Shown: piece after piece, positions 9,957 to 47,986 of the stretch
Layout of the letters: every line of letters begins with the position of its first letter
Position numbering within the stretch: position 1 is the first letter of the stretch
DNA from: Rhodohalobacter barkolensis
Lineage (GTDB): Bacteria > Bacteroidota > Rhodothermia > Balneolales > Balneolaceae
Direction of reading: 5' to 3'
DNA length: 64,000 nucleotides
NCBI RefSeq assembly: GCF_002834295.1
Contig: NZ_PISP01000001.1
Location: forward strand, 1,736,001-1,800,000
The notes under the pieces: generated by a model
What the model was told of the DNA's origin: nothing
What the model saw: only the letters and a program-made list of their open reading frames with translations
Databases searched by the model: none
Translations under genes and position numbers: made by a program

Positions 9957-10003
9957 AAAAAAGTACTTAATTAATGATTAAATGTGGTTGATTTAACAAT
10001 ATG

Positions 10004-10040
10004 AATAAAAAAAGGTGACGATCAAAGAGATCGCCACCTT
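10004..10040 (-). terminator. Intrinsic terminator downstream of ssb
   Basis: On the minus strand AAGGTGGCGATC and GATCGTCACCTT (10029-10040 and 10012-10023) form a 12-bp stem with one G-U pair around a 5-nt loop. A run of seven T follows, then TATTC. It sits 37 bp past the ssb stop. Confidence 0.85.
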
Positions 10041-10077
10041 AAAATACGAAATGTTAAGTCAATTAACCTGTACAGAA

Positions 10078-10524
10078 TTAGAATGGAAGATCGTCATCCA
10101 TATCATCAAATGAGTCATCCAATTCAGCTGACGGTGCAGTTGCTTTGTTTCCTCCACCTGAATTCTGTGAGGCATTTCCTCCGCCCTGATCTCCACGACT
10201 GTCAAGCATTTGCATATTGAATGCTTTGACTTCTGTGGTATATCGTTTTTGACCTTCTTTATCTTCCCACTCACGGGTCTCCAGTTTACCTTCAAAATAG
10301 ACCAAAGATCCTTTTTTCAGGTACTGCTGGCAAATTTCTGCCAAACGGTTCCAAACTACAACACGATGCCACTCGGTTTTCTCCTGCAGCTCTCCGTTTC
10401 TGTCCTTATATCTGTCGGTGGTTGCCACACTCATATTTGCAACTGCAGCATTTGACTGTGTGTAACGTACATCAGGATCTGCTCCCAATCTTCCGATTAT
10501 CATTACTTTATTTAATGAACTCAT
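10078..10524 (-). CDS. ssb: Single-stranded DNA-binding protein
   Basis: Binds ssDNA through an N-terminal OB fold (residues 1-110; [48 protein letters not shown]) and recruits repair and replication proteins through its acidic C-terminal tip. The tip here is DDDLPF, the canonical SSB-Ct form. A Gly/Asn/Ser/Gln-rich linker joins the two parts. 148 residues is typical. It follows the dap operon on the same strand with a 79-bp gap and its own terminator, so it probably has its own promoter in the gap. Confidence 0.97.
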
Positions 10525-10603
10525 AATTAATTGTCTTTTTTGTTAACGTTCTATCTATAAGAACAGAAATTTTTGTTTCCCTTACAGAATTTTTTCAAAA
10601 AGT

Positions 10604-11350
10604 TTATCGAAGAGCACTTTCCAGCTCAAGAGACGCGTCACTTCCTTCATCTCTATATTTAATAATTACAGGGCAGTACGCAGACAACTCCTGCCTTCTT
10701 GCCCACTCATTTTTAATTGGCCTCGAACCGGGTATCACAACGGCATTTTCAGGAATGGGTGCGCCTTTGCCAAGCATTACTTCATTAACACAGTCGTAAA
10801 CCGGAACAGATTTAGAAAGAGTTACTCCCGGAGCCAAAACAGCACCTTTTTTAACCAAAATCCCTTCAACAATCACAGCCCCAGCCCCGATGAAACAGTC
10901 ATCTTCAATTACAACAGGGCTCAAGCCAACCGGTTCGAGCACACCGCCAATTTGCACTCCGGCAGAAAGGTGAACGTTCTTTCCAATTTGAGCACAAGAA
11001 CCCACCAAGGCGTGGCTATCAATCATAGTGCCTTCATCAACGTACGCACCGATATTTATATATGCAGGCGGCATGATTATCACTCCTTTGGCAACATAAG
11101 CACCTCTCCTTACTGAGGATCCGCCCGGAACCAATCGCACACCCTCTTCAGCATCAAACATGCGCGGAGGAATATTATGCTTATCTACAAAACCGTCGTA
11201 TATGCCGGCATAATTTACATTATTTCCCTTTTTAAAAGCAGCTAATATTGCTTCCTTAACTTCAATATTTGCACTCCAGGTTTCACCTTCTTTTTCGGCG
11301 GCACGAACCGTTCCTTCTTCGAGCTGATCTAAAGTTTCTTCCCAATTCAT
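10604..11350 (-). CDS. dapD: 2,3,4,5-tetrahydropyridine-2,6-dicarboxylate N-succinyltransferase
   Basis: Transfers succinyl from succinyl-CoA to tetrahydrodipicolinate in the succinylase route to meso-diaminopimelate and lysine. It has the left-handed beta-helix built from hexapeptide repeats (about residues 65-200), with the DapD-specific GAYVDEGTMIDSHALVGSCAQ region and the EPVGLSPVVIEDD block. At 248 residues it is somewhat shorter than the 274-residue E. coli enzyme, mainly at the N-terminus. It starts one base after the dapA stop and is the last gene of lysC-dapB-dapA-dapD. The presence of dapD indicates the succinylase branch rather than direct aminotransferase DapL. Confidence 0.94.
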   Translation of the reverse strand: MNWEETLDQLEEGTVRAAEKEGETWSANIEVKEAILAAFKKGNNVNYAGIYDGFVDKHNIPPRMFDAEEGVRLVPGGSSVRRGAYVAKGVIIMPPAYINIGAYVDEGTMIDSHALVGSCAQIGKNVHLSAGVQIGGVLEPVGLSPVVIEDDCFIGAGAVIVEGILVKKGAVLAPGVTLSKSVPVYDCVNEVMLGKGAPIPENAVVIPGSRPIKNEWARRQELSAYCPVIIKYRDEGSDASLELESALR

Positions 11351-11351
11351 C

Positions 11352-12230
11352 TTATTTATTTATTTTTTTATACCAGTTCATAATTTCTGTATCCGACGTT
11401 TTTAGTCGTTTGTAGTGTTGAAAATCGTTAGCAGTAAGTGGTAATCGAAGTTCGGGACTTTCAATAATTCCCTTCTCATAGAGCAGAACTTTAGCCGGAA
11501 TTGGATTCGGAGCAGAAAATAGCATCTCAACCGCATGTTTCCAGACAAGAAAAAGTGACTCAGTATTTCCTGACAAACAGTATTCAACAAACTTTGCTGT
11601 CTCCTTTGGCCACACGTTAGACGCAACAGAGACCAATCCTGATGCCCCGGCTACCGACAAAAACGGCATTAATCCGTCATCTCCACTGAACATTGGAATA
11701 TCGGGCACCATTTCCCGAAAAGACTGAAAATCCGCCAGGTTACCACTCGCTTCTTTGATTGACCAAAAATTAGGATGCCCAGACAATTCACCCATCACGT
11801 TAGGAGGTATTTCAACTCCGGTTCGTGACGGTATGTTATAAATCATACACTGTTTTTCAGCTATATCCATCAACTCCCTGAACCAGATTTTTTGTCCTTC
11901 CGGGCCGGGTTTAGCATACAGTGGGGATACGATCAGAAAAGCATCCACTTTGTCGTTGCAATACTTTATCCAATCCTTCTGTTTACTGATCTGAAATCCG
12001 CCCACACCAGCCATAATAGGCACATGTAAATCCAATTCTTTTGCAAATCTTACAATCTCTTTTTGTTCCTCATCATCAAGAGCCAATCCTTCGCCGGTGC
12101 TACCAATTAAAAGAACACCGTTTCCGGCCTCTTCCTGTCTTCTGATAAGCTTTTCAAGATCCTCAAAATGAACCTCACCCGACTCTTTCATCGGTGTAAT
12201 GAGTGCTGTCCAAAGCGTAGTATTTTTCAT
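11352..12230 (-). CDS. dapA: 4-hydroxy-tetrahydrodipicolinate synthase
   Basis: Condenses pyruvate with aspartate semialdehyde, the first step specific to diaminopimelate/lysine. The 292-residue TIM barrel shows LIGSTGEGLAL near the N-terminus, MIYNIPSRTG with the catalytic-triad Tyr, and WSIKEASG with the Schiff-base Lys159. It overlaps the dapB stop by 4 bp (ATGA), indicating coupled translation. Confidence 0.96.
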   Translation of the reverse strand: MKNTTLWTALITPMKESGEVHFEDLEKLIRRQEEAGNGVLLIGSTGEGLALDDEEQKEIVRFAKELDLHVPIMAGVGGFQISKQKDWIKYCNDKVDAFLIVSPLYAKPGPEGQKIWFRELMDIAEKQCMIYNIPSRTGVEIPPNVMGELSGHPNFWSIKEASGNLADFQSFREMVPDIPMFSGDDGLMPFLSVAGASGLVSVASNVWPKETAKFVEYCLSGNTESLFLVWKHAVEMLFSAPNPIPAKVLLYEKGIIESPELRLPLTANDFQHYKRLKTSDTEIMNWYKKINK

Positions 12231-37738: not shown

Positions 37739-37754
37739 TGTATCGTGGGGCGGA
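37739..37754. repeat. attL: left 16-bp direct repeat
   Basis: TGTATCGTGGGGCGGA is identical to 47526-47541, which lies in the 3' end of the CAU tRNA gene. After one mismatch (T for C) two more bases match, then the sequences diverge, so this is a tRNA 3'-end fragment and not a tRNA gene. Confidence 0.9.
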
Positions 37755-37869
37755 TTTACGCCACATTCTTACACTTACCTAAAAAGTGTGCTATTATCAC
37801 ATTTAAATGTACTTTTTAAATATTTTTGTGAAATTTTCTTCTCGGAAAAGTGAGTAAATACAAAAAATG

Positions 37870-37946
37870 TTGTACCATTGTTGTACCTATTTCACAGTAT
37901 CGAAAACACGATACATAAATTCTAGACAGGTACAACATGGGTACAA
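37870..37946. promoter_or_regulatory. Left arm-type integrase sites, one pair spanning the integrase start codon
   Basis: TTGTACC occurs at 37870-37876 and 37881-37887, 11 bp apart in direct orientation. The reverse GGTACAA occurs at 37929-37935 and 37940-37946, again 11 bp apart, and covers the integrase ATG (37937). This symmetric phased layout fits arm-type binding sites of a tyrosine recombinase, and its overlap with the start suggests self-repression (inference). Confidence 0.65.
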
Positions 37947-39175
37947 CATATCATTTTTACCTCCGCAAGGATAAAGAAAGAGCCAATGGTGAATGTCCGA
38001 TTTATCTAAGAATAACAAAGAACCGAAAATCCAGATATAACAGTACTGGCATTTACGTTTTACCTAAGCATTGGAATGATGAAAAAGAAGTCATCAGAAA
38101 AACACATCGTAATGCAAAAAGTCTCAACAGTATATTAGAACGGGAGCAAAATAAAGCCGAAACAATTCAAGACGAATTAGGGGTATTTGGTAAAGACTCT
38201 GCAAAGACTATTCAGGAAAGACTTAAGCAACAGGAAAGCGGAGACTTCTTTGAACTGGCAAGTACTTACGAAAAAGAATTACAGGAGCGTAAAAAACTAT
38301 CAACTGTCAAAACGTTAGGTGTAGTATTAAACAAACTGGAAGCCTTTGAAGGTGACAGGGCGCTTCCACTCAAACATATCGATGCAGAATACTTAGAAAG
38401 GTTTGAGGGCTTCTTAAAACGCAAATACAAAAACCGTTCTACAACTATCAATAAAAACTTTGAGCCTATTCGGGCGATTATAAGAAAAGCCTTACAAAAA
38501 CATTTAATATCGATAGACCCATTCATCAATTTTAAAGGAGCAAAAAGAGGAAAACCAAAGCCTAAGACAAAACTTACTATCGAACAAATTAGAGCTATTG
38601 AGCAAACAACTCTAAATACAAACTCTAACCTCTGGAATACCAGAAACTATTTTATGTTTTCCTTTTATAGTGCCGGTATTCGATTTGGTGATCTTTGTTG
38701 TTTGAAATGGAAAGACGTAAAAGGCGATCAGCTTTCCTACCAGATGAATAAGAATGATAAAGTCTTCACAATTGATATGAATAAATACCAAAAAAATATT
38801 CTGGAGCATTATTCTGAGGATAAAAAGAAAGATCAATTCATTTTTCCAATTCTAAATAATCACAAAGACTATTCAGACCCAATTTTTTTAAGAGAACAAA
38901 TCGGCAACAAAAATGTACTCATCAATAAATGGCTTAGAAAAATTGCGGAAAAAGTGAATGAAAGACTGGAAAAAGAAGAATCAAAAGTACCATCTATCGA
39001 TGGAATTTCTTTTCATGTTGCCAGACATAGCTTTGCTCAATACGCAGTCGAAAAAGGCTTAAGTATTTATGAAGTGATGCAAACATTAAGACATTCACAG
39101 ATCAAGACTACTCAAAGATACTTGAAAGGGTTGGATGAACAGCTGGCAGATAAAGCAATGAAGAAGGTATTTTAA
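37937..39175 (+). CDS. Tyrosine recombinase/integrase (Phage_int_SAM_5-type)
   Basis: The 412-residue protein has an N-terminal arm-binding domain (residues 1-about 75, TYHFYLRKDKERANGECPI), a SAM-like core-binding domain (about 100-210) and a catalytic domain. Catalytic residues seen: Arg in GIRFGDLCCL, the HVARH box, His in LRHSQIKTTQ, and the nucleophile Tyr in QRYLKGL. It is the organisation of Bacteroidota integrases. The ATG lies inside a pair of inverted recombinase-type sites. The next gene begins right after its stop (TAAATG). It surely mediates integration at the tRNA. Confidence 0.95.
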   Translation: MGTTYHFYLRKDKERANGECPIYLRITKNRKSRYNSTGIYVLPKHWNDEKEVIRKTHRNAKSLNSILEREQNKAETIQDELGVFGKDSAKTIQERLKQQESGDFFELASTYEKELQERKKLSTVKTLGVVLNKLEAFEGDRALPLKHIDAEYLERFEGFLKRKYKNRSTTINKNFEPIRAIIRKALQKHLISIDPFINFKGAKRGKPKPKTKLTIEQIRAIEQTTLNTNSNLWNTRNYFMFSFYSAGIRFGDLCCLKWKDVKGDQLSYQMNKNDKVFTIDMNKYQKNILEHYSEDKKKDQFIFPILNNHKDYSDPIFLREQIGNKNVLINKWLRKIAEKVNERLEKEESKVPSIDGISFHVARHSFAQYAVEKGLSIYEVMQTLRHSQIKTTQRYLKGLDEQLADKAMKKVF

Positions 39176-40045
39176 ATGGCGGAAGCAATTTACACTGTTG
39201 ATGATTGGAAAAGTGGTTTGATTCACGAGCATTTAAAGAAGAGGGAATTGCCTCAAGTTATACTGGATGAAGTTAAAAATGTTGGGTTTCTGAATGAATT
39301 GCTTTACAGAAAAAAATTCATACTCGAAAAAGACTATGATGAGATTAAAAGCATTATGAAAGATGTCTTTTTCCGTGTACTAGATCACAACGTTCAACAA
39401 AGACTTGATTTTTTTAAACCAAAATTGAAAGAAGCCTATCGCCCCAAACAGCTTTTAGATGAACGTATAAAAGAATTACAGAATACGTTTGACAAAGCAG
39501 ACTCTCATTACCGAGAAGAAGCTTTAAAAGGTGGGTGGAGTGAAATTGGCATTGATAGCGAAACTTACAAAAAGATCAATGATGAAAAATATAAAAGCAT
39601 ACCGGTTTCATTAATCCAGTTCACTCCTAAAAGACAATTTGAAAGGCTCGGTGGTTTTCACCCTCATTTCACAGATAAATACTACCAAATGCAAAATATC
39701 ACATTCGATGTTTCTGAGGTATTTAGGTTTAGAGAAAGACTCATTGAATTCAGGAGTGGAAAAGATATTTCTCAAATCAACAAATACCCTGCCCCTTTTG
39801 AGATAGCCAAGCTTTTTAAAGACCAATCAAAAGTAAAGAGATCAGATTATTCTACTGAAGATTATACCTTCGTTATGAAATATGCGATGGAAAATGATAC
39901 TCAAGGAAATGTATCTAAATTAATAAGGCAAATAACTGAAGCTAAGAATTGTCCAAAAGTTATCTCAAAGAATAAAGAAACCAACTCTAATACACTTCGT
40001 CGATGGATTGAGTTTTATGATACCAAAGCGGGTATCAAACGCTAG
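39176..40045 (+). CDS. Hypothetical protein following the integrase, 289 aa
   Basis: No family recognised. It is abutted by the integrase stop (no gap), implying coupled expression. The protein is highly charged, Lys/Glu-rich and soluble, without membrane segments or Cys clusters beyond isolated residues. A basic motif KRQFERLGGFHPHF near residue 150 and RRWIEFYDTKAGIKR at the end could bind nucleic acid (guess only). It may be an accessory factor of recombination. Confidence 0.75.
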   Translation: MAEAIYTVDDWKSGLIHEHLKKRELPQVILDEVKNVGFLNELLYRKKFILEKDYDEIKSIMKDVFFRVLDHNVQQRLDFFKPKLKEAYRPKQLLDERIKELQNTFDKADSHYREEALKGGWSEIGIDSETYKKINDEKYKSIPVSLIQFTPKRQFERLGGFHPHFTDKYYQMQNITFDVSEVFRFRERLIEFRSGKDISQINKYPAPFEIAKLFKDQSKVKRSDYSTEDYTFVMKYAMENDTQGNVSKLIRQITEAKNCPKVISKNKETNSNTLRRWIEFYDTKAGIKR

Positions 40046-40076
40046 TGAAGCTCTGATAAAAGCAGTTTTTTAATTT

Positions 40077-40131
40077 TCCTGCTTTCTTCCTGCTATTCCT
40101 TCTATTGTCTCCTGCTATGTTTCCTTTCTAT
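40077..40131. repeat. Helically phased TCCTGCT repeats upstream of the HTH gene
   Basis: TCCTGCT occurs at 40077, 40088 and 40110, that is 11 and 22 bp apart, with degenerate TCCTTCTAT at 40097 and TCCTTTCTAT at 40122. The whole 55-bp stretch is pyrimidine-rich on the plus strand and sits between the 289-aa gene and the HTH gene. It resembles iterons or an operator for a phased DNA-binding protein. Confidence 0.5.
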
Positions 40132-40169
40132 CGTGTAGGTAAATGAAATAGGAAAAAGCCCTACACATT

Positions 40170-40457
40170 ATGCAAGCTTACATTCCAGATGAAGCAACAT
40201 TGGAAAAGGTCATAGCCAAAGTTACTAGAAGAGTAGTCATAGAAATTCTTCCTGATGTTATCAGAAAGGCAACCCGAAAAGAGTGGTTGACTACTGATGA
40301 TGTAATGGAAATTCTGGATTGCTCAAGAAGACATGTTCAATATCTGAGAGACAGTAAGCAACTCACCTTTTCTCAAAATGGGAGGACGATCAGATATCAT
40401 TTCGATGATCTGGAATCATTCATGAATTCCCATAAAGTAGAATCCGAGAGAGCATAA
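40170..40457 (+). CDS. HTH protein, excisionase/MerR-type (HTH_17-like)
   Basis: Residues about 38-88 form a winged helix of the excisionase (HTH_17) kind: WLTTDDVMEILDCSRRHVQYLRDSKQ followed by a strand and RTIRYHFDDLESFM. The N-terminal 35 residues are a helix. In integrative elements of Bacteroidota such proteins act as recombination directionality factors or local regulators. The phased TCCTGCT repeats directly upstream are a plausible binding site. Confidence 0.85.
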   Translation: MQAYIPDEATLEKVIAKVTRRVVIEILPDVIRKATRKEWLTTDDVMEILDCSRRHVQYLRDSKQLTFSQNGRTIRYHFDDLESFMNSHKVESERA

Positions 40458-40508
40458 GATAGGATTACTTCTCAATTCATTTTCGGGCACTGCTGGAGAG
40501 CAACCCGA

Positions 40509-40575
40509 CCACACGGAGAAAGCCAAGAGGTTAAATATGCCTCTTGGCACTCTTTAAACACCTTTCTCTGTGTGG
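40509..40575. repeat. Nested hairpin A
   Basis: Outer arms CCACACGGAGAAAG (40509-40522) and CTTTCTCTGTGTGG (40562-40575) pair over 14 bp with one G-U. Inside, GCCAAGAGG (40522-40530) pairs with CCTCTTGGC (40540-40548) round a 9-nt AT-rich loop. Confidence 0.75.
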
Positions 40576-40626
40576 AAAAACTCATTCAAATGTCTTTTAA
40601 GAATCCATATGTGGATTAAGACTAAG

Positions 40627-40664
40627 GCGTACCGCGGGGTACTATCCTTGTCCCCGCGGTACGC
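40627..40664. repeat. Perfect 13-bp GC-rich hairpin C
   Basis: GCGTACCGCGGGG (40627-40639) and CCCCGCGGTACGC (40652-40664) pair exactly around the 12-nt loop TACTATCCTTGT. It stands out in an AT-rich island. A smaller AATCCA/TGGATT hairpin lies just before it (40602-40617). Confidence 0.85.
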
Positions 40665-40697
40665 GGATCTCTGATAGGACTCTGAGCTAAATAAATA

Positions 40698-40738
40698 GGC
40701 GGACAAGCAACTCGATGTTGCTTGTGCGACTTCCCGCC
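40698..40738. repeat. Hairpin D ahead of the HUH gene
   Basis: ACAAGCAAC (40703-40711) pairs with GTTGCTTGT (40717-40725) round TCGAT; outer GGCGG (40698-40702) can pair with CCGCC (40734-40738). It ends 24 bp before the HUH start codon. Confidence 0.75.
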
Positions 40739-40761
40739 GAATCTCAAAAAATGACAATCAA

Positions 40762-41157
40762 ATGAATTATGAAAGGAACTACAAACTACAAAGGGAATAC
40801 ACGGAATGGCTTTCCAAAGAACGTTGGGACTATTTCTTCACTGGAACATTCAAATTTGAAGGTATCACTCCTAACGGCGCACGTAGGGCAGCTGAACGAT
40901 TTTTTCGAGGATTCCCTACCAAGGAACTTGTGGTTCTTTTCATCGAATCGGGAAGTTTATATGGAAAGGTTCATCTGCACGGTCTGTTACGTTTCCGTAT
41001 CGATAGAAAACCTTCAGCTGAAACTATTTGGAGAGGATGGTTCGACAAATATGGACGTGCCAAAGTGGAAGTTCCTAAATCCTCAGAAGACGTTTCAAGC
41101 TACTGTTGTAAGTATGTCACGAAAGAAATGAAAGATGAAACCTTTATAGTCTTATGA
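40762..41157 (+). CDS. Small HUH-type (rolling-circle replication-associated) endonuclease, 131 aa
   Basis: Three motifs of rolling-circle initiators appear in order and spacing: motif 1 FFTGTF (residues 25-30), motif 2 HLH (H71 and H73, in KVHLHGLLRF), and motif 3 with Y114-x2-K117 in SSYCCKYVTKE. This matches the microvirus VP4/REP_ORF2-G2P-like single-Tyr HUH family, whose members nick one strand at an origin and start replication. At 131 residues it is little more than the catalytic core, with no helicase. A tandem hairpin cluster lies immediately upstream. The next gene overlaps its stop by 4 bp (ATGA). Confidence 0.78.
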   Translation: MNYERNYKLQREYTEWLSKERWDYFFTGTFKFEGITPNGARRAAERFFRGFPTKELVVLFIESGSLYGKVHLHGLLRFRIDRKPSAETIWRGWFDKYGRAKVEVPKSSEDVSSYCCKYVTKEMKDETFIVL

Positions 41158-41414
41158 AAGCAGAAAACGAACAACTTGCAAAACTATACAGACAAACAGG
41201 AAGGTGGGTAAATGATACTCCTGTGAATGAAGAAAACCATTGGTGTTCACGTTGTAAAAACCGATTGGGAAAGACAGAAAAGATTTCTTTTACAGTTTAT
41301 GGTTTACTTTGGAAGCCGTTTAGATTTGAGTATCACCCAGTATGCTTAATTAAGGCTCTTAATGAATGGGAAAATAATCTAAAAGAAAAGAAACATCTTT
41401 CTGATGCTGAATAA
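41154..41414 (+). CDS. Small putative zinc-binding protein, 86 aa
   Basis: Overlaps the HUH gene by 4 bp, so it is translationally coupled. HWCSRCKNRLG and the later YHPVCL supply a CxxC plus His/Cys that could bind zinc (HxCxxC... HxxC). It has no membrane segment and is charged toward the C-terminus. Coupling to the HUH gene suggests a replication accessory role (inference); no family recognised. Confidence 0.72.
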   Translation: MKAENEQLAKLYRQTGRWVNDTPVNEENHWCSRCKNRLGKTEKISFTVYGLLWKPFRFEYHPVCLIKALNEWENNLKEKKHLSDAE

Positions 41415-41537
41415 ATCATTTAATGCCCATTTCTAACCTTTTATTCATTGATTTTAGCCATTCAAATTTGACATCAAAAAGGCTAAAAGTGCCTTTTAAA
41501 TGACATTTAACCGTTAACATTAACAATAGTAAGTAAA

Positions 41538-41756
41538 ATGGAACAAGTAGAAGAAATCAAATGCCCATTATGTGATGAGTCCTTTCGAGATAAAAGGGGA
41601 TTAACCTCTCATGCAAGAAATAAGCATGACTTGGAAAAGGATGAAGTCTTTGAAAAAATGACCCAGAAAGAGCAGGAAAAGAAAGAATGGAAAATACTTG
41701 GAGGAATTGGGACAATTTTTCTAGCTCTAATTACACTGGGGAAATTCTCAAAATAA
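41538..41756 (+). CDS. C2H2 zinc-finger protein with C-terminal membrane helix, 72 aa
   Basis: C9-x2-C12-x12-H25-x4-H30 (KCPLCDESFRDKRGLTSHARNKH) matches a classical C2H2 finger including the hydrophobic Phe and Leu between. A Glu/Lys-rich helix then leads to a hydrophobic segment (about 51-67; ILGGIGTIFLALITLG), probably one membrane helix. Such a finger on a membrane tether is uncommon in bacteria. It is separate from the 86-aa gene by 123 bp. Function unknown; DNA binding at the membrane is a guess. Confidence 0.68.
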   Translation: MEQVEEIKCPLCDESFRDKRGLTSHARNKHDLEKDEVFEKMTQKEQEKKEWKILGGIGTIFLALITLGKFSK

Positions 41757-42056
41757 CCTGGTACTAAATTAGTAGATTGCAAAATCTGCTATAAAATACA
41801 TTCTTCGATAAAAATAACCTTCTGTTTCCCCAAAAGATTTTTAAAAAGATCCATCGTATCTATCCTGTAAATAAGCTACAGTCTATTCGGGAAACATCCT
41901 TTTAATTTTAGTTAGCTATTTTCTAAGTATTTAGGTTATTTTGGCATAATTACTTACAAAATGTGTTTTTACTAACAATTTTGCAGCTTAAAAGACCTAT
42001 TTACGGTCTAAGCCATATCAGAGTAAGAATCTTAAAAGAAAAGGATTAAGACATAG
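41757..42056. other. AT-rich intergenic region upstream of the restriction operon
   Basis: 300 bp without an ORF or recognised repeat. It is very AT-rich and likely carries the promoter of the mod-res-nuclease operon. A weak hairpin (AGACC and GGTCT, about 41994-42010) is the only structure I see. Confidence 0.5.
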
Positions 42057-44081
42057 ATGAAACTTTACGAGACACTAGAGAAACAGCTCAAAAACGAACC
42101 TAATTTTGTAAGTGATAATGGGATTTTGAAAAAGTGGGTGATCTTAAACAAAGCACAAAACTTTGACCAAGACTTGATAGCTATGTTATTGGAGAACCAA
42201 GAGTTGAAACAGAAATTTTTCATGGATATAGAAGGGACATTGGTCTTCAACCAGAACCTTTTTATGGATTTTCTCGAACAGAAAAACTATTTGAACGATA
42301 GCTACACCCAGTATAGAAATAAAGTTGGATTCGCCATTGGTGATAAACATCTGAAGCAACGAAATGAAATTTCATTAGTATGGCCTTTTAAAGACTGTGT
42401 ACTAGAGGGTGGGCAAAGCCGTGAAGAACAAGAACGAGAGGAAATTTTTTTTAACGAAATACTAGCCCAAGATGAGATAACTCAGTTGTTAGAGCCTAAA
42501 GTACTGTCTAAAGCCAAAGTCTTTTTTGAAGGAGGTGAAAAACCATTCAGTAGTTTTAAACGTGATGCCGAATATAATAAGAAAAGAGGGTTGCCAGAAA
42601 ACACAATTACTGACAATCTACTTATTAAAGGAAATAACCTAATGGCATTACACTCACTAAAAAGAGAGTTTTTCGGAAAGGTAAAGTTGATTTACATAGA
42701 CCCTCCATTTAACACAGGAAAGGATGAATTTAATTATAACGACAGATTCAATCATTCAACTTGGCTTACATTCATGAAAAATAGGTTGCAGGCCGCTAAA
42801 GAATTGCTTAAAGAAGATGGAATAATGGTTGTCCATGTTGGTAATGAAGAAGCAGCTTACATTCAGGTTCTTTTAGATGAAGTTTTTAATAGAGAGAACT
42901 ACCTGAATCATATAACTATGAGTACGAATCCGCCCTCTGGTTTCAAAGCCACAAGTTCGAAAATATTCTCGACTGCAAATCACATATTCTTTTACGGCAA
43001 AAATTTAGAGCATTCAGAATTAAATAAACTTCATGTTCCTAAAGGATATGATACTGCATACAAATACTATTTGATCAATCCTGAAGATGACTTTTCAAAA
43101 TGGAAATACTGTAACATTATTGATGAAATTGCCAGAAGACTAGGATATGAAGACACAAAAACTCTTAAAAAATCTGTAAGCAAATCTGAGTTATTAAAAA
43201 AGACTGCTAATTTTGCTCATAAGAATAATAATAGAGTATTTCGTACTGCTGCAGTTGGTGGTGGAGCTAGGAAAAAAAGAAAGAAAACAATTGAAAAATC
43301 GAAAGAGAATAGAGGTGTTGTTATGCAACATCCCGGGGAAGATGTCGAGGGGTTTTATATATTAAATGGAGAAATGATCATTTTTTGGTCTAATACATAT
43401 AAGGAGATAGATGGCGAATTATTGCCAGGGCAATCATTAACTGATGTATGGACTGATATTGGATTTACTGGAATTTCAAGTGAAGGAGGAGTAACTCTAA
43501 AAAATGGTAAAAAACCTGAGTTACTTCTTAAAAGAATTTTAGACTTGGCTTCTGAGCCTGGTGATATCGTTCTAGACTATCATTTAGGTAGTGGTACAAC
43601 TGCTGGAGTTGCAATGAAAATGCAGAGACAATTTATTGGAATTGAGCAATTACACTATGGTAAAAATGACAGTTTAATACGCTTAAAAAACGTAATTAAT
43701 GGTGATAAATCAGGAGTATCAAAATACAAAGATGTTAATTGGAAAGGCGGGGGCTCTTTCACATATTTTCAACTCAAAAAATATAATCAACATTTTATTG
43801 AAGAGATTGAAGAAGCAAAAGACACCAAGGAATTATTGAAAATTTGGGAGGATATGAAAGCTAAAAGTTTTATGAAATATAATGTGGATATTAAAAAGCA
43901 GGAACAGCATATAGAAGACTTTAAAGCACTCAGTCTTGATGATCAGAAGAAACACCTTTGTGAACTGCTCGATAAAAACCAACTGTATGTCAATCTTTCA
44001 TCTCTTTACGATAAAGACTTTTTATCCTCAGATACAGAAAAGTTAGTTACACAAGACTTTTACCAACTTAAAACTAAGTAA
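42057..44081 (+). CDS. mod: Type III restriction-modification methyltransferase subunit
   Basis: N6-adenine methyltransferase that also sets target specificity for the type III complex. Motif IV DPPF is at residues 215-218 (IYIDPPFNTGKDEF) and the SAM-binding motif I follows later, DYHLGSGTT from residue 507, giving the beta-class order. The variable region between (about 260-490) is the likely target-recognition domain. Length 674 is ordinary for Mod. Its stop is 4 bp before the res start. The AT-rich composition differs from chromosomal neighbours. I cannot predict the recognised sequence. Confidence 0.93.
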   Translation: MKLYETLEKQLKNEPNFVSDNGILKKWVILNKAQNFDQDLIAMLLENQELKQKFFMDIEGTLVFNQNLFMDFLEQKNYLNDSYTQYRNKVGFAIGDKHLKQRNEISLVWPFKDCVLEGGQSREEQEREEIFFNEILAQDEITQLLEPKVLSKAKVFFEGGEKPFSSFKRDAEYNKKRGLPENTITDNLLIKGNNLMALHSLKREFFGKVKLIYIDPPFNTGKDEFNYNDRFNHSTWLTFMKNRLQAAKELLKEDGIMVVHVGNEEAAYIQVLLDEVFNRENYLNHITMSTNPPSGFKATSSKIFSTANHIFFYGKNLEHSELNKLHVPKGYDTAYKYYLINPEDDFSKWKYCNIIDEIARRLGYEDTKTLKKSVSKSELLKKTANFAHKNNNRVFRTAAVGGGARKKRKKTIEKSKENRGVVMQHPGEDVEGFYILNGEMIIFWSNTYKEIDGELLPGQSLTDVWTDIGFTGISSEGGVTLKNGKKPELLLKRILDLASEPGDIVLDYHLGSGTTAGVAMKMQRQFIGIEQLHYGKNDSLIRLKNVINGDKSGVSKYKDVNWKGGGSFTYFQLKKYNQHFIEEIEEAKDTKELLKIWEDMKAKSFMKYNVDIKKQEQHIEDFKALSLDDQKKHLCELLDKNQLYVNLSSLYDKDFLSSDTEKLVTQDFYQLKTK

Positions 44082-44085
44082 CCTT

Positions 44086-46644
44086 ATGCCTTTTTTGTAC
44101 GATACCATTATAAGGGAATTTGGTAAACGAGAGATTGAACGAACTGAAGTGCCAAAGATTATTTTAGACAATCTTCGCCCAAAATTCAGTCCAAGGCCAT
44201 ATCAAGTTGAAGCCTTTCGACGCTTTGTTCTTTGCTACAATGAAGATTTTAAAGGCAAACCTTACAAACCATTACACTTGTTGTATAATATGGCAACTGG
44301 GAGTGGTAAGACACTGATAATGGCGGGTCTAATTTTATACTTGTACGAAAAAGGACATCGAAATTTTTTGTTCTTTGTAAACAGCAGTAACATTATTAAA
44401 AAAACTAAAGACAATTTTCTAAATCCACAATCCAGTAAATACCTCTTTAGTAGAAAAGTTGTACACGATAGTAGAGAGATACTTATCAAGGAAGTAAAGA
44501 ATTTTGAAGAGGCCGACTCAGAGAACATTAATATCAAGTTCACAACAATTCAACAATTACATATTGACCTTGATAATACTAAAGAGAACAGTATCACCAT
44601 TGAAGATTTTAAAAATAAAAAAGTGGCTCTCATTGCAGATGAAGCTCATCATTTGAATTCAGCTACTCGAAACAATGGTAATATGTTTGATAGTTGGGAG
44701 GGTACGGTAATGAATATATTAAAAGCTAATTTTGACAATATCCTACTAGAGTTTACCGCAACGCTTGATTATGAAAATCGTGAGATAGCTGATAAATACA
44801 AAGATAAAGTTATTTACAAATACGATTTAGCTCAGTTCAGATTGGATAAATATTCCAAAGAAATAAATCTAGTCCGGTCACTATATGACGAGAAAGAACG
44901 GATGATTCAGGCATTAGTATTAAACCTATATCGTCAGGAATTAGCAACATCATGCAACATCAACCTCAAACCTGTAATTCTTTTTAAAGCGAAAAGAACA
45001 ATAGCAGAGTCAGAGCAGAACAAAATTAATTTTCACCGGTTGATTGATGAATTTTCTCAAGATATGGTGGAGAATATTCAACAAACATCTACTGTGCCAA
45101 TTGTTCAAAAAGCTTTTCAATTTTTCCAAAGGAATGGGCTATCAAACAACAAAATAGCAAAAAGAATTAAAGCTAACTTTAAAGAGGAAAATTGCATTAG
45201 CGCCAATAATGATGCTGAAACTGAAAAAAATCAGATTTTACTAAATACTTTAGAGGATGAAAATAACCCTATTCGTGCTGTCTTTGCTGTTAAGAAATTA
45301 AACGAAGGTTGGGACGTATTGAATTTGTTTGATATTGTAAGACTTTATGAAGGACGAGACGGACGGGCAGGTAATCCGGGCAATACTACCATTTCTGAAG
45401 CTCAACTTATAGGTAGAGGGGCAAGATATTTTCCTTTTACTTTAGAAGAAGGACAGAACCCATATAAAAGAAAATTCGATAATGATGTTTCTAACGACTT
45501 AAAAATACTTGAAGAGCTCTATTATCACACCAAGGAGGATAGTAGATACATCTCTGAGCTAAAGCAAGCACTCGTTTACACTGGAATCTATGAAGACGAA
45601 AGTAATTTGGAAACCAAGCAGTTGACACTGAAAGATGAGTTCAAGCAAACTAATTTCTACAAAACTGGCAAAGTTTTTTACAACAGAAAAATTGAAAAAA
45701 GCTATGACAATGTTAAATCATTTAACGATTTAGGTGTAAAGAAAAAGAATCACAAACATACACTTTCATCAGGCTTTGGTAAAATGACAGCTCTTTTCAT
45801 CAAAGATGATAATGACATTGACTCAGATGAATTTGAATCGAAAGATATATTGGTTAATGATATTCCAAAACATATTGTCCGTTTTGCATTATCACAAAAT
45901 CCTTTTTTCTATTTTGATAATCTTGTTAAATATTTTCCAAATCTCGGATCCTTATCCAATCTCATAGCGAATGAAAATTATCTTTCCGACTTGGAAATAA
46001 CATTTAACGGTACAAAAAACCGGTTGGCAAATATTGATAATGAGGATTATTTATCTGCCATAAACGGATTATTAGAGTCAATAGAGTTAGATATTAAATC
46101 TAATCTTAATGAATATGAGGGTTCAGATTACATAGAGGATTACCTACATAAAGTTTTTAAAAACAAGGAAATTAACGTGAGTAAAAATTCTGAACGATCC
46201 TATGGACAAGAAGACTTTGTTTCTGATAAACCCTGGTATGTGTTTAATGCAAATTATGGTACTAGTGAGGAAAAAGAATTCGTAAAAATGTTCGCCAGGC
46301 GCTTTAAATATTTAGAAAACAAATATCATAATATCTACCTAATACGAAATGAACGTCAATTGAAAATATTTGATGATTCAGGGCAAAGATTTGAGCCGGA
46401 CTTCATTTTATTCTGCAAACAAAAAAATGGAGAAGAACTAACTTATCAAGTATTTATAGAACCTAAAGGAGCGCATCTTATTGCTAATGACAAGTGGAAA
46501 GAAAGTTTCTTAAAGAAAATTCGTCAAGAAAAGAAAACTATAAAAATCGACACTGATAAATACTTAATAACTGGTGTTCCGTTTTATAATAATGCCAATG
46601 AAAACGAATTTATTGACAGTCTAAATTCAGTAATAGATTTATGA
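44086..46644 (+). CDS. res: Type III restriction enzyme subunit (helicase-nuclease)
   Basis: SF2 ATPase that cleaves unmodified DNA with Mod. Walker A GSGKT is at residues 72-76 in NMATGSGKT, the DEAH box at 185-188, and a helicase C-like part with IGRGARYFPF near residue 440. The C-terminal nuclease is PD-(D/E)XK: D772 in FEPDFILF and E792-x-K794 in IEPKG. All catalytic elements are intact, so it should be active. It overlaps the next gene by 4 bp (ATGA). Confidence 0.93.
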   Translation: MPFLYDTIIREFGKREIERTEVPKIILDNLRPKFSPRPYQVEAFRRFVLCYNEDFKGKPYKPLHLLYNMATGSGKTLIMAGLILYLYEKGHRNFLFFVNSSNIIKKTKDNFLNPQSSKYLFSRKVVHDSREILIKEVKNFEEADSENINIKFTTIQQLHIDLDNTKENSITIEDFKNKKVALIADEAHHLNSATRNNGNMFDSWEGTVMNILKANFDNILLEFTATLDYENREIADKYKDKVIYKYDLAQFRLDKYSKEINLVRSLYDEKERMIQALVLNLYRQELATSCNINLKPVILFKAKRTIAESEQNKINFHRLIDEFSQDMVENIQQTSTVPIVQKAFQFFQRNGLSNNKIAKRIKANFKEENCISANNDAETEKNQILLNTLEDENNPIRAVFAVKKLNEGWDVLNLFDIVRLYEGRDGRAGNPGNTTISEAQLIGRGARYFPFTLEEGQNPYKRKFDNDVSNDLKILEELYYHTKEDSRYISELKQALVYTGIYEDESNLETKQLTLKDEFKQTNFYKTGKVFYNRKIEKSYDNVKSFNDLGVKKKNHKHTLSSGFGKMTALFIKDDNDIDSDEFESKDILVNDIPKHIVRFALSQNPFFYFDNLVKYFPNLGSLSNLIANENYLSDLEITFNGTKNRLANIDNEDYLSAINGLLESIELDIKSNLNEYEGSDYIEDYLHKVFKNKEINVSKNSERSYGQEDFVSDKPWYVFNANYGTSEEKEFVKMFARRFKYLENKYHNIYLIRNERQLKIFDDSGQRFEPDFILFCKQKNGEELTYQVFIEPKGAHLIANDKWKESFLKKIRQEKKTIKIDTDKYLITGVPFYNNANENEFIDSLNSVIDL

Positions 46645-47375
46645 CACTTAATTCAAGAAAAGATTATATAGACAGTGAAGCTTCTCAAGGTTCAAAAAGT
46701 AACTCTTTAGAGCTTGCTCATCAATTTGTAAAAGAGATTCATTCAGATATTGCTCCACTACTTCAAGAATGTATTATCTTTGATTCAGAAAAAACTTTAG
46801 GAAATGCGCCTGCTGTTGAAATTCCAAATGACAAACTAGCAATCGCACCTGATATCAGATGTACAACTCATGAAGGGAATGTATTTTGGTTTGAAGTCAA
46901 AGATAAGTCTCAAAGATTCTATTACCCAGATACTGGTGCAGATTTATTTCAAGTATATGGTTGGTATAATATAAATAAACACTATAGCGAGCCGGTTTTT
47001 GTACTTTTCAAAGACCCGCCATTTGATAGCTGCATTCCAAAAACCCCTAGTGAAAAAAACTTAGAAAAATTTAAACCCCGTTGGTCAAAATTCAACGGCA
47101 AACCTTATGGAGCATGGTTAAGCCAGTTACTTGAATTAAATAATAATTATCCAAGAATATTTAATGAGAGATCTCGCAATCAACAAATGCCTATTCTGTA
47201 CTTTTTAATTAGTCAAATGCAACCAGTAACAAGTTGGCAAGCATTGATTGATGAAGTAGATGGAAAAAATATTCCAGATGTTAAGGAAACTTTTGAAGCT
47301 TACCACAATCGAACGAACAAGTTATTGGATGAGGATAAGGTCAGAGGCATAATAGCCGCACTATTTAGTAAATAA
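46641..47375 (+). CDS. Third gene of the type III operon: PD-(D/E)XK nuclease-like protein, 244 aa
   Basis: Translationally coupled to res by ATGA. The middle of the protein shows a clear PD-(D/E)XK-type core: D71 in IAPDIRC, then after 13 residues E85-x-K87 in FWFEVKDKS, preceded by a helix with E24. The tail (about 90-244) has many aromatic residues and no other motif I know. Classic type III systems have only mod and res, so this gene is an addition. It may be a second nuclease, an inhibitor, or an anti-phage module. Confidence 0.78.
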   Translation: MTLNSRKDYIDSEASQGSKSNSLELAHQFVKEIHSDIAPLLQECIIFDSEKTLGNAPAVEIPNDKLAIAPDIRCTTHEGNVFWFEVKDKSQRFYYPDTGADLFQVYGWYNINKHYSEPVFVLFKDPPFDSCIPKTPSEKNLEKFKPRWSKFNGKPYGAWLSQLLELNNNYPRIFNERSRNQQMPILYFLISQMQPVTSWQALIDEVDGKNIPDVKETFEAYHNRTNKLLDEDKVRGIIAALFSK

Positions 47376-47450
47376 TGGCCACTGCAGCTATTGTAAACAC
47401 TTATTCCTAGATTACAACTCATAGAGAGAGAAAGAATAGTCGATATTTTG

Positions 47451-47468
47451 TTTTACCATTGTTGTACC
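47451..47468. promoter_or_regulatory. Right arm-type integrase sites
   Basis: TTTTACC (47451-47457) and TTGTACC (47462-47468) are again 11 bp apart, and the 18-bp string TACCATTGTTGTACCTAT is identical at 37873-37890 and 47454-47471. This mirrors the left arm. Confidence 0.65.
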
Positions 47469-47481
47469 TATCCTGAATAAA

Positions 47482-47520
47482 AAAGCCTTAAACAGCTATT
47501 ATTTAGCTACTTAAGGCTTT
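47482..47520. terminator. Terminator near the right island end, replacing the tRNA terminator
   Basis: AAAGCCTTAA (47482-47491) pairs with TTAAGGCTTT (47511-47520), with inner AGCTA and TAGCT. On the minus strand a run of T follows (TTTTTTATT), fitting termination of the tRNA transcript. It lies on the island side of attR. Confidence 0.85.
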
Positions 47521-47525
47521 AATTA

Positions 47526-47541
47526 TGTATCGTGGGGCGGA
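47526..47541. repeat. attR: right 16-bp direct repeat within the tRNA 3' end
   Basis: TGTATCGTGGGGCGGA is identical to 37739-37754. It covers the discriminator, acceptor 3' strand and part of the T-stem of the adjacent minus-strand tRNA, the classic integration site of tyrosine recombinases. Confidence 0.9.
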
Positions 47542-47601
47542 CTTGAACCGCCGACCTCCGGGTTATGAATCCGACGCTCTAACCAGCTGAGCTACCACGA
47601 C
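47528..47601 (-). tRNA. tRNA-Met(CAU), 74 nt, integration target
   Basis: The reverse complement reads GTCGTGG-TA-GCTC-D loop-GAGC, anticodon loop TTCATAA (CAU), variable loop AGGTC, T-loop TTCAAGT, acceptor CCACGAT plus A. All stems close, except an A-C pair at 31-39 and a G-U at 1-72. No CCA is encoded. Elongator Met is more likely than Ile2 (lysidine) but this cannot be settled by eye. Confidence 0.85.
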
Positions 47602-47638
47602 ATAACATCAACAATTTCAAACTACATCATAAATAATC

Positions 47639-47720
47639 TATCGTGGGACGGACTTGAACCGACGTCCCGAATGCTTTCGGGATATGAATCCGACGCTCTA
47701 ACCAGCTGAGCTACCACGAC
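47639..47720 (-). tRNA. Second CAU tRNA with palindromic variable region (possibly pseudo-tRNA), 82 nt
   Basis: The first 38 nt are identical to the neighbouring tRNA-Met. After the anticodon the sequence has AAGCATTCGGGAC in place of a 5-nt variable loop, creating a TCCCGAA/TTCGGGA palindrome that competes with the anticodon stem. The T-stem has one mismatch (GTCGG with CCGTC) and 31-39 is again A-C. It may be a functional odd tRNA or a disrupted copy. Confidence 0.65.
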
Positions 47721-47986
47721 ATAAATGTGTAAAATCAATAAAATGACATTCACACTTCGTTTTCAAGAGAGCATCAAATATATCACTTTTTTTACATAAA
47801 GTTGAAACCGAAAACCCCACTTTTTTTGATTTTTCCAATCCGAGTAAATCAAACTGTAAGGGAAGTGAAAAAACTTACTTTATCTTGACTGCATATCGAG
47901 GTATTTTAGCAAGTCATAAATAAATACGAAACACGCACTGCAACTCTACTTGCAGAGCAAAAAAATATGCAAATCACTCTTTACTG

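What the first reader, a model, noticed from the sequence alone, without database searches (positions are those of the whole stretch)
37739..47541. Compact tRNA-integrated element carrying HUH endonuclease and three-gene type III restriction locus
A 16-bp direct repeat identical to a tRNA 3' end delimits about 9.8 kb with integrase at one end. The element combines a tyrosine recombinase, a HTH protein, a hairpin cluster and a minimal HUH protein, and has no conjugation or virion genes. This gene set looks like an integrated plasmid or satellite with its own rolling-circle step, using defence as cargo. It is the strongest candidate for an undescribed element family in the window.
Basis: partly seen in the sequence, partly recalled or inferred. 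Interest (0 to 1): 0.7.

Follow-up and report, generated by a model that had tools for sequence, protein, structure and literature searches.

The report
Rolling-circle, defence-carrying tRNA-integrated satellite-like element
A 9.8-kb piece of foreign DNA sits at the end of a tRNA gene; it carries its own integrase, a tiny rolling-circle-type replication protein and an anti-phage restriction system, and relatives at other tRNA genes keep the same movement genes but carry other defence genes, on a chassis shared with elements that hold phage-particle genes.

Summary
Confirmed and extended. A 16-bp repeat that occurs only twice in the 3.6-Mb genome bounds 9,787 bp at a tRNA-Met 3' end. A same-genus genome has the empty site with one repeat copy. 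Three complete relatives, in two other genomes of the family (Balneolaceae by inference), lie at tRNA-Leu (two) and tRNA-Arg, each bounded by 16-21 bp of its own tRNA. All share int - int-adjacent gene - HTH_17 - hairpin cluster - minimal HUH Rep, then differing cargo: type III RM, HEC-01, retron VI or unassigned; a decayed fifth copy carries Dsr1-like genes.

Their integrases group with those of elements that keep int and HTH_17 at tRNA sites but fill the replication slot with primase/helicase-type genes, phage-type initiators or a larger Rep; at least four of these 14 carry terminase or capsid genes. The layout matches PICMI/PICI phage satellites with a HUH Rep in the primase's place. Best reading: a defence-carrying, PICMI-like satellite that excises, replicates by rolling circle from the hairpin locus and is packaged by a helper phage. 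Element, family and swaps are shown; nicking, replication and packaging are inferred. Main rival: a mobilizable element whose Rep is its relaxase. New variant of a known kind.

The parts
37739..37754 (+). left attachment repeat (16 bp copy of the tRNA-Met 3' end)
   Evidence: 2 exact copies in the whole assembly
37868..37949 (+). paired TTGTACC sites in inverted arrangement before int, candidate integrase arm sites
   Evidence: (D10, I6); most structured window of the element in the scan, z -8.2 at 37840; role inferred
37937..39175 (+). tyrosine recombinase / integrase (412 aa)
   Evidence: PF00589 7.9e-17, PF13102, PF17293; 67-72% identical in 3 other copies
39176..40045 (+). int-adjacent gene (289 aa), no family over a cut-off; stands where iolg/icg stands in PICMIs
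   Evidence: starts at the base after int; 28-31% identical to the counterparts in the 3 other copies, 29% to that of L064; only sub-threshold matches; position in PICMI from PMC10803314
40170..40457 (+). HTH_17 (AlpA/excisionase-type) regulator
   Evidence: PF12728 1.1e-11; tblastn match in 12 of 14 related integrase regions
40480..40740 (+). hairpin cluster (perfect 13-bp stem with loop at 40627-40664), candidate rolling-circle double- and single-strand origins
   Evidence: z -9.05; stem found; 8 pairs with changes on both sides against 2.5 in shuffles, 0 of 500
40762..41157 (+). minimal HUH Rep (131 aa), motifs FTGTF / HLHG / YCCKY
41154..41414 (+). 86-aa Cys/His-rich protein overlapping the end of the Rep gene
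   Evidence: tblastn counterparts in L012, L013, L014; a 61-aa ORF in the same place in L011
41538..41756 (+). 72-aa C2H2-type protein with a hydrophobic C-terminal stretch
   Evidence: PF00096 3.1e-5, 24.6 bits, just under its 25.2 cut-off; counterparts in L011-L013
42057..44081 (+). type III methyltransferase (Mod)
   Evidence: PF12564, PF01555; PADLOC MTase_III 7.9e-182
44086..46644 (+). type III restriction subunit (Res)
   Evidence: PF04851; PADLOC REase_III 2.9e-140
46641..47375 (+). third cargo gene (244 aa), orphan; PD...E-x-K by eye only
   Evidence: no Pfam, PHROG, NCBIfam or PADLOC match listed; 1 of 385 phylum genomes, itself
47449..47471 (+). right-end TTGTACC arm-type sites, 96% identical to 37868-37890
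   Evidence: D10
47526..47541 (+). right attachment repeat at the tRNA-Met 3' end
47527..47601 (-). target tRNA-Met(cat)

Best explanation
It is an integrated, defence-carrying, phage-satellite-like element. Steps: (1) the tyrosine integrase recombines at a tRNA 3' end through the repeated core and TTGTACC arm sites; (2) the HTH_17 protein and the int-adjacent protein act as activator and excision partners, as AlpA and iolg do in PICMIs; (3) on the excised circle the 131-aa HUH Rep nicks one strand at the hairpin locus beside its gene and starts rolling-circle replication with host polymerase and helicase, the other hairpins serving as lagging-strand origin, so that no primase gene is needed; (4) the multimers are packaged by a helper phage, most likely tailed; (5) the distal, exchangeable defence module protects the host from other phages. 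Shown: ends, empty site, conserved module, insertions at different tRNA genes, cargo differences, relation to elements with packaging genes, selection on the hairpins. Inferred: nicking, rolling-circle replication, the role of the HTH and int-adjacent proteins, packaging by a helper. I put the integrative element with HUH replicon and swappable cargo at about 0.85; the confidence given is for the whole statement, satellite transfer included.
For: Ends: 16-bp repeat, exactly 2 in the assembly; empty site in G404 with one copy. Family: complete copies in G227 (two) and G368, int 67-72% and HUH 70-73% identical, each bounded by 16, 19 or 21 bp of its own tRNA (Arg, Leu, Leu) and with TTGTACC sites near both ends. 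The two G227 copies are 94% (int) and 91% (HTH to the C2H2 gene) identical in nucleotides but differ in the int-adjacent gene and cargo. Cargo: type III RM, HEC-01, retron VI RT+HTH, Dsr1-like in the decayed L014, unassigned in L012. Chassis: 18 integrases at E<=1e-100 in 13 of 92 family genomes; of the 14 other than the four HUH copies, 12 have the HTH by tblastn and 10 a tRNA downstream; 9 of those 10 have an 11-24 bp repeat at the tRNA end (no chance control). At least 4 of the 14 carry terminase or head genes: L054 terS, L059 capsid, L063 terS + capsid + protease, L066 terS + terL. The int-adjacent protein of L064, whose replication gene is BT4734 + PriCT_2 primase-type, is a homologue of the window's (29%, 8e-14). 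PICMIs have int - iolg - alpA (PF12728 or PF05930) - DUF3987 primase - distal defence genes, and their paper reads replication as rolling-circle and packaging as concatemers (PMC10803314, passages); DUF3987 is in relatives L055 and L060. Rep: first 7 Foldseek rows are circovirus or geminivirus Reps, best E 2.7e-3, none <= 0.001; relative in L069 passes PF23343, 32.1 bits. Origin; HTH-to-Rep gap 303-320 nt in 4 of 4 copies. Integrase tree: HUH copies form one side of a branch, 88/86.
Against: No nick, circle, excision or particle was observed. No terS, capsid or known packaging signal was found in the HUH copies. No relative of the Rep or of the integrase was found in viral contigs; the Rep has none in plasmids and one weak partial hit in phages. 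Zot and HK97-capsid families are absent from 4 of 4 carrier genomes, so no resident helper of those kinds is seen. The window Rep itself is below the PF23343 cut-off, and many non-Rep folds score as high as viral Reps in VIA-align. The big-hairpin loop is TCTATCCTTGT in 2 copies, ACTATCCTTGT in the window and TCAATCTTTAT in the fourth. One covariation measure is weak: 14 further pair types against 11.8 shuffled, reached by 30 of 500. L064 has a 302-nt HTH gap without a HUH gene (not folded). L069, with a Rep, has 3 nt between HTH and Rep and no window at z <= -5. The HUH clade's tree support is below the starred level, with long neighbouring branches.
Confidence: 0.55

Rival explanations
1. 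A non-canonical integrative mobilizable element: the HUH protein is a relaxase (perhaps also the replication initiator) that nicks an oriT in the hairpin region, and the element moves through a conjugative helper's pore.
For: [quoted passage not shown] Many known IMEs integrate at gene 3' ends with tyrosine recombinases (same passages). The element has no packaging gene. Distant Rep relatives (26-27%) in Clostridia MAGs have an integrase-like stretch nearby in L009 and L010.
Against: The int/HTH chassis is shared with elements carrying terminase or capsid genes. No coupling-protein or mobilization family was hit in the nine proteins. In the 4 carrier genomes the coupling-protein family PF02534 has no match over its cut-off (one at 19.1 bits against 20.1 in the window's own genome) and relaxase PF03432 none; divergent helpers would be missed. 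By the same review the few Bacteroidetes IMEs then known carry canonical relaxases.
Confidence: 0.2
2. An integrated rolling-circle plasmid with only accidental horizontal transfer: integrase, Rep and origin keep it able to exist as a circle, and defence genes pay for its upkeep.
For: Integrase, Rep, hairpin origin and cargo are nearly all that is present; the fold hits include the plasmid Rep RepB of pMV158.
Against: No relative of the Rep in 72,556 plasmid records. Same-order HTH and int-adjacent genes as in elements with phage genes. Copies at different tRNA genes in three genera argue for active transfer.
Confidence: 0.15
3. A dead genomic island: the recombination and Rep genes are relics and only the restriction system matters to the host.
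For: The fifth copy L014 is decayed: integrase and HTH not found, Rep N-terminus lost, cargo kept.
Against: In the window, L011, L012 and L013 the reading frames of int, HTH and Rep are open with catalytic motifs kept, and both ends are intact; hairpin stems show compensating changes.
Confidence: 0.08

Closest known systems
PICMI (phage-inducible chromosomal minimalist islands, Vibrionaceae; PMC10803314, passages read)
   Same: Gene order integrase - int-contiguous gene - AlpA-type HTH (PF12728) - replication gene - distal defence cargo; direct-repeat ends (17 bp in PICMI115); no capsid-remodelling genes
   Different: HUH Rep instead of DUF3987 primase; tRNA sites instead of fis; other phylum; induction and packaging untested here
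PICI and cf-PICI satellites (PMC6092414, passages read; cf-PICI only as mentioned in PMC10803314)
   Same: Integrase at one end, alpA-type regulator, replication module, accessory or defence genes; the integrase's relatives include cf-PICI-like L063
   Different: No pri/rep primase, terS or capsid gene; no helper known
RS1phi, satellite of phage CTXphi (PMC7567579, passages read)
   Same: A satellite that carries its own replication initiator (rstA); that it works by rolling circle for a filamentous helper is recalled
   Different: By the passage integrates at dif through host recombinases and is largely a part of CTXphi; no own integrase, AlpA-type gene or defence cargo (recalled)
Non-canonical IMEs with rolling-circle-type relaxases (PMC5704250, passages read)
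   Same: Tyrosine integrase plus a Rep-related HUH protein, no pilus genes
   Different: No Rep_Trans, Rep_2 or Viral_Rep family hit; AlpA-type HTH and satellite kin
AICEs such as pSAM2 (recalled)
   Same: tRNA integration, excisionase-type HTH and a rolling-circle Rep
   Different: No FtsK/TraB-type translocase; RepSA match only E 0.36
P2-like phages and P4-like satellites as carriers of defence hotspots (PMC9122126, abstract start seen in listing)
   Same: Variable anti-phage cargo on a fixed mobile chassis
   Different: Different chassis and replication genes (recalled)

Membership tests
PICMI | integrase (PF00589) and AlpA-type HTH (PF05930 or PF12728) | tested here: met
   PF00589 7.9e-17 and PF12728 1.1e-11, both over cut-off; model definition in PMC10803314
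PICMI | primase DUF3987/DUF5906 | tested here: not met
   no such family in the nine proteins; DUF3987 is present in relatives L055 and L060
PICMI | integration downstream of fis | tested here: not met
   tRNA-Met site, next gene a proline-tRNA-ligase-like ORF by eye
PICMI | induced, replicated and packaged as concatemer by a helper phage | not testable with these tools
   needs culture and phage
PICI | pri/rep replication module | tested here: not met
   HUH Rep only
PICI | no structural or lytic genes, size of about 10-15 kb | tested here: met
   9,787 bp, no such families hit
cf-PICI | own capsid and packaging genes | tested here: not met
   present in relative L063
non-canonical IME | Rep-related relaxase of a family known from IMEs | tested here: inconclusive
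   HUH motifs present; no Rep_Trans, Rep_2 or Viral_Rep hit
non-canonical IME | oriT and transfer through a conjugative helper | not testable with these tools
   needs mating assay; PF02534 over cut-off in 0 of 4 and PF03432 in 0 of 4 carriers
HUH endonuclease superfamily | HUH motif with catalytic Tyr downstream | tested here: met
   H71-L-H73 and Y114/Y118 invariant in 4 of 4
HUH endonuclease superfamily | Rep-type fold | tested here: inconclusive
   model pLDDT 81.6; first 7 Foldseek rows viral Reps, best E 2.7e-3; VIA Z 8.7 to 2x3g but unrelated folds up to 8.2
REP_ORF2-G2P (PF23343) | score over the curated cut-off | tested here: inconclusive
   own score 22.9 against 27.8 bits; its 37%-identical relative in L069 passes with 32.1
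type III restriction-modification | Mod with N6/N4 methylase domain and Res helicase-nuclease | tested here: met

The most novel reading that the evidence does not exclude
A family of phage satellites that replaced primase-based replication by a stand-alone ~130-aa HUH Rep with a multi-hairpin origin, and so replicates by plasmid- or ssDNA-phage-like rolling circle before being packaged by a tailed (or even an ssDNA) helper phage: a satellite chassis whose replication module and defence module are both swappable.
Probability: 0.45. Interest if true: 0.75.

Novelty: new variant of a known kind. Interest (0 to 1): 0.58.

Why it matters
It would extend PICMI/PICI-type satellites to the Balneolaceae; among the rows listed in my nine paper searches (open-licence PMC only, capped lists) I saw no report of that. 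It would also show that the replication slot of an integrase-AlpA-type satellite can be filled by a minimal HUH Rep. It offers a compact trap for defence genes: the region between the Cys/His genes and the tRNA held a different defence or unassigned cluster in each of five copies. And it makes the border between satellites, mobilizable elements and rolling-circle plasmids testable in one small system.

Tried and rejected
Structured RNA as the explanation of the hairpin cluster: no Rfam match there at E<=1; of five matches in the region only the two tRNAs passed their gathering scores. Filamentous-phage helper: Zot PF05707 in 0 of 4 carrier genomes; that model rings in 5 of 14 control genomes, mostly archaea and thermophiles, and would miss divergent forms. 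Resident HK97 helper prophage: PF05065 in 0 of 4. Resident conjugative helper: PF02534 over cut-off in 0 of 4, PF03432 in 0 of 4. Relatives in viral contigs, plasmids or phages: none beyond one weak partial phage hit, Vibrio phage XacF13 at E 0.03 (the integrase was searched in viral contigs only). Third restriction gene: no family, no plasmid relative, one chance PDB hit at E 0.96, 1 of 385 genomes, itself; the single-sequence model has pLDDT 35.9 and was not used. The int-adjacent protein has a 15-bit match to DISARM DrmD (cut-off 950), taken as chance. VIA-align was not specific: 2x3g, an archaeal-virus protein, 8.7 and Helitron 8.1, but ribosome chains and others at 8.0-8.2; that 2x3g is a minimal viral Rep is recalled. 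Weak profile hits G432 and G042 were looked at: L033 has a Rep-like frame near a contig end and no integrase match to the window's; L034 has an HTH-like frame, an integrase (28%) and a broken Rep-like frame near tRNA-Arg; both are noted and not counted as members. Distant Rep relatives in three Clostridia-type MAGs (26-27%) were not followed beyond. The likeness of the loop CCTTG to pC194/phiX174 nick sites is recalled and not tested. The count of 4 of 14 with terminase or head genes is a lower bound: not every protein of the 14 regions was scanned, L056 and L067 end at contig edges soon after int, and L061 has its HTH about 7.6 kb from int and was not resolved. The further scan of ten proteins from L055, L057, L058, L060, L062, L064 and L065 added no head or packaging family. 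The best exact repeat of L062 lay outside the tRNA and is not counted. In the fold z-scan 13 loci were scanned (not L014, L056, L061, L064-L067), with 15 shuffles per window, so those z values are rough.

Full report
OBSERVATION. The 16-bp repeat TGTATCGTGGGGCGGA is at 37739-37754 and 47526-47541, and nowhere else in the 3.6-Mb assembly (2 forward, 0 reverse, reversed-pattern control 0). The right copy is the 3' end of tRNA-Met(cat) 47527-47601, minus strand. A second pair of repeats lies inside the ends: TTGTACC-type sites at 37868-37890 and 47449-47471, 96% alike, placed like integrase arm sites. The element has 33.9% GC against 40.1% and 41.0% in its flanks.

EMPTY SITE. In G404, a genome of the same genus, the left-flank gene, a terminator-like stretch, one tRNA-Met and the gene to its right follow each other without the element; the in-silico joined window site aligns to it with a single repeat copy. 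G235 has the same gene order, also without the element at this place, but about 370 bp lie between gene and tRNA.

GENES. int 37937-39175; a 289-aa gene that starts at the next base; HTH_17; about 300 nt of hairpins; a 131-aa HUH protein; 86-aa and 72-aa Cys/His-type proteins; then type III mod and res and an orphan 244-aa gene. The HUH protein has FTGTF, HLHG and YCCKY, invariant in four copies. Its model (pLDDT 81.6) gives circovirus and geminivirus Reps as the first seven Foldseek rows (best E 2.7e-3, none at 0.001 or lower). A second aligner puts an archaeal-virus protein first (2x3g, Z 8.7), but unrelated ferredoxin-like folds score nearly as high. Its own PF23343 score is below the cut-off, but the 37%-identical protein of L069 passes it. 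Motifs, fold and this link together carry the name.

FAMILY. The Rep was found in 4 of 394 genomes of the phylum, the window's own included, 6 of 92 of the family by profile, two of them weak, and 7 of 244 of the class. The seventh is G528, in another family, with an integrase fragment, an HTH_17 gene (51.5 bits) and a 137-aa Rep in the same order; there only 3 nt separate HTH and Rep. A pattern scan of genome contigs gave four loci: G081's contig and three distant ones (26-27%) in Clostridia-type MAGs. Three complete copies besides the window's: L011 and L012 (both in G227) and L013 (G368). They end at tRNA-Leu, tRNA-Arg and tRNA-Leu with repeats of 19, 16 and 21 bp that match their own tRNA, and keep TTGTACC sites near both ends. 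L014 (G081) is decayed but lies beside the same tRNA-Met and neighbour gene as the window's.

CARGO. Window: type III RM. L011: HEC-01A/B plus a 1224-aa protein with a weak nSTAND3 match under its cut-off. L013: retron VI RT and HTH plus two proteins without a family. L014: SIR2-type and Dsr1-like. L012: HNH-type and unassigned genes. L011 and L012 sit in one genome and are 94% (int) and 91% (HTH to the C2H2 gene) identical in nucleotides, yet the int-adjacent gene and the cargo share no DNA match. This is direct evidence of module exchange.

CHASSIS. An integrase profile at E<=1e-100 hit 18 places in 13 of 92 family genomes. Apart from the four HUH copies, all 14 remaining regions were fetched. 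An HTH like the window's was found by tblastn in 12 of 14 and a tRNA downstream in 10 of 14; 9 of those 10 have an 11-24 bp repeat at the tRNA end (no chance control, and the shortest are weak). Replication genes seen near the HTH: DUF3987 + BT4734 (L055, L060), AAA_25 + BT4734 (L057, L058), BT4734 + PriCT_2 (L064, L065), phage-type initiators (L059, L063, L066), or a 294-aa HUH Rep (L062, PF23343 67.2 bits). At least four of 14 carry packaging or head genes: L054 terS, L059 capsid, L063 terS + capsid + protease in 8.9 kb, L066 terS + terL; a further scan of ten proteins of other regions added none, and not all proteins were scanned. L055 and L057 have nearly identical integrases but different replication genes, so the replication slot is exchanged too. 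The window's int-adjacent protein is homologous to that of L064 (29%, 8e-14). In the integrase tree the four HUH copies are one side of a branch (88/86, below the starred level) among these rows.

COMPARISON WITH PICMI. From passages of PMC10803314: PICMI115 has int, iolg (overlapping int, needed for excision), alpA, a primase and two further genes, 17-bp repeats, and no capsid-remodelling genes. Some PICMIs carry RM, retron, DRT or PARIS systems between prim and fis. The PICMI search model uses PF12728 among its AlpA profiles and DUF3987 among its primase profiles. The window's order is the same with the HUH Rep in the primase's place and a tRNA in place of fis. Those two defining features are not met, so it is not filed as a PICMI; it is proposed to work like one. 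A satellite with its own initiator of another kind exists: RS1phi of CTXphi carries rstA (PMC7567579, passages).

ORIGIN. The 304 nt before the Rep fold as ssDNA at -66.3 kcal/mol, z -9.05, 0 of 100 shuffles. On four copies, 55 named pairs are 91.7% paired and 8 pairs show changes on both sides against 2.5 +/- 1.4 in shuffles (0 of 500) and at most 3 in slid controls; further pair types are less telling (14 against 11.8, 30 of 500). Two of the four copies are close kin, so the independent evidence is smaller than it looks. In the scan the HTH-Rep gap holds the most structured window in L011, L012 and L013, and the second in the window, after the int arm sites. L054, L055, L057, L058, L060 and L063 have no window at z <= -5; L059 has one, far from its HTH; L062 (large Rep) has two, one at the start of its Rep; L069 has none despite its Rep. 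The perfect 13-bp stem at 40627-40664 is my candidate nick region; its loop is alike in three copies and differs in L012.

MECHANISM AND LIMITS. Integration is shown by sequence. That HTH and int-adjacent proteins drive excision, that the Rep nicks the hairpin locus, that a hairpin serves as lagging-strand origin, and that a phage packages the product are inferences from PICMI and rolling-circle plasmids. No circle, particle or helper was seen: viral-contig scans were empty, and in the four carriers neither HK97-capsid or Zot families nor, over cut-off, coupling-protein or relaxase families were found. The IME reading, well precedented in Streptococcus (PMC5704250), remains open.

LITERATURE. 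Nine searches listed, among the rows shown, no paper on a satellite of this layout with a HUH Rep or on satellites in Balneolaceae; only open-licence PMC papers are held, and I read passages of six papers (PMC10803314, PMC12324425, PMC6092414, PMC5704250, PMC11389934, PMC7567579), none in full.

Noticed in passing
L063 1757-10656 (G394, oriented as fetched): 8.9-kb tRNA-Leu element with int, HTH_17, replication initiator, terS, HK97-type capsid, head protease and a kinase-like gene: a cf-PICI-like satellite in this family.
   Followed up: partly
L013 10383-13879: Retron VI RT and HTH followed by two genes (413 and 353 aa) with no Pfam or PADLOC match; possible partners.
   Followed up: partly
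L011 12156-15830: 1224-aa protein with weak nSTAND3 match next to HEC-01A/B, no PADLOC match: candidate defence NTPase.
   Followed up: partly
L012 9874-15984: Six cargo genes in the defence slot (HNH-type, 651-aa and others), mostly without a family match: candidate unknown defence cluster.
   Followed up: partly
L013 3985-5488: A second tyrosine integrase beside tRNA-Met directly left of the HUH element: neighbouring elements at adjacent tRNA sites.
   Followed up: no
L034 7864-10352 (G042): HTH-like frame - integrase (28%) - broken Rep-like frame next to tRNA-Arg: a distant, decayed relative of the same plan.
   Followed up: partly
L062 4655-5839 (G227, oriented int forward): Same chassis with a 294-aa REP_ORF2-G2P Rep: HUH Reps may have entered this slot more than once.
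   Followed up: partly
L009 and L010, about 10001-11570: Clostridia-type MAGs with a distant Rep (26%) followed by an integrase-like stretch: the Rep-integrase pairing may reach other phyla.
   Followed up: no
window 41538-41756: 72-aa protein: C2H2-type finger plus hydrophobic C-terminal stretch, kept in the four complete copies; role unknown.
   Followed up: no
window 47527-47721: Two tandem tRNA-Met genes; G404 and G235 have one detectable copy each at this place.
   Followed up: partly
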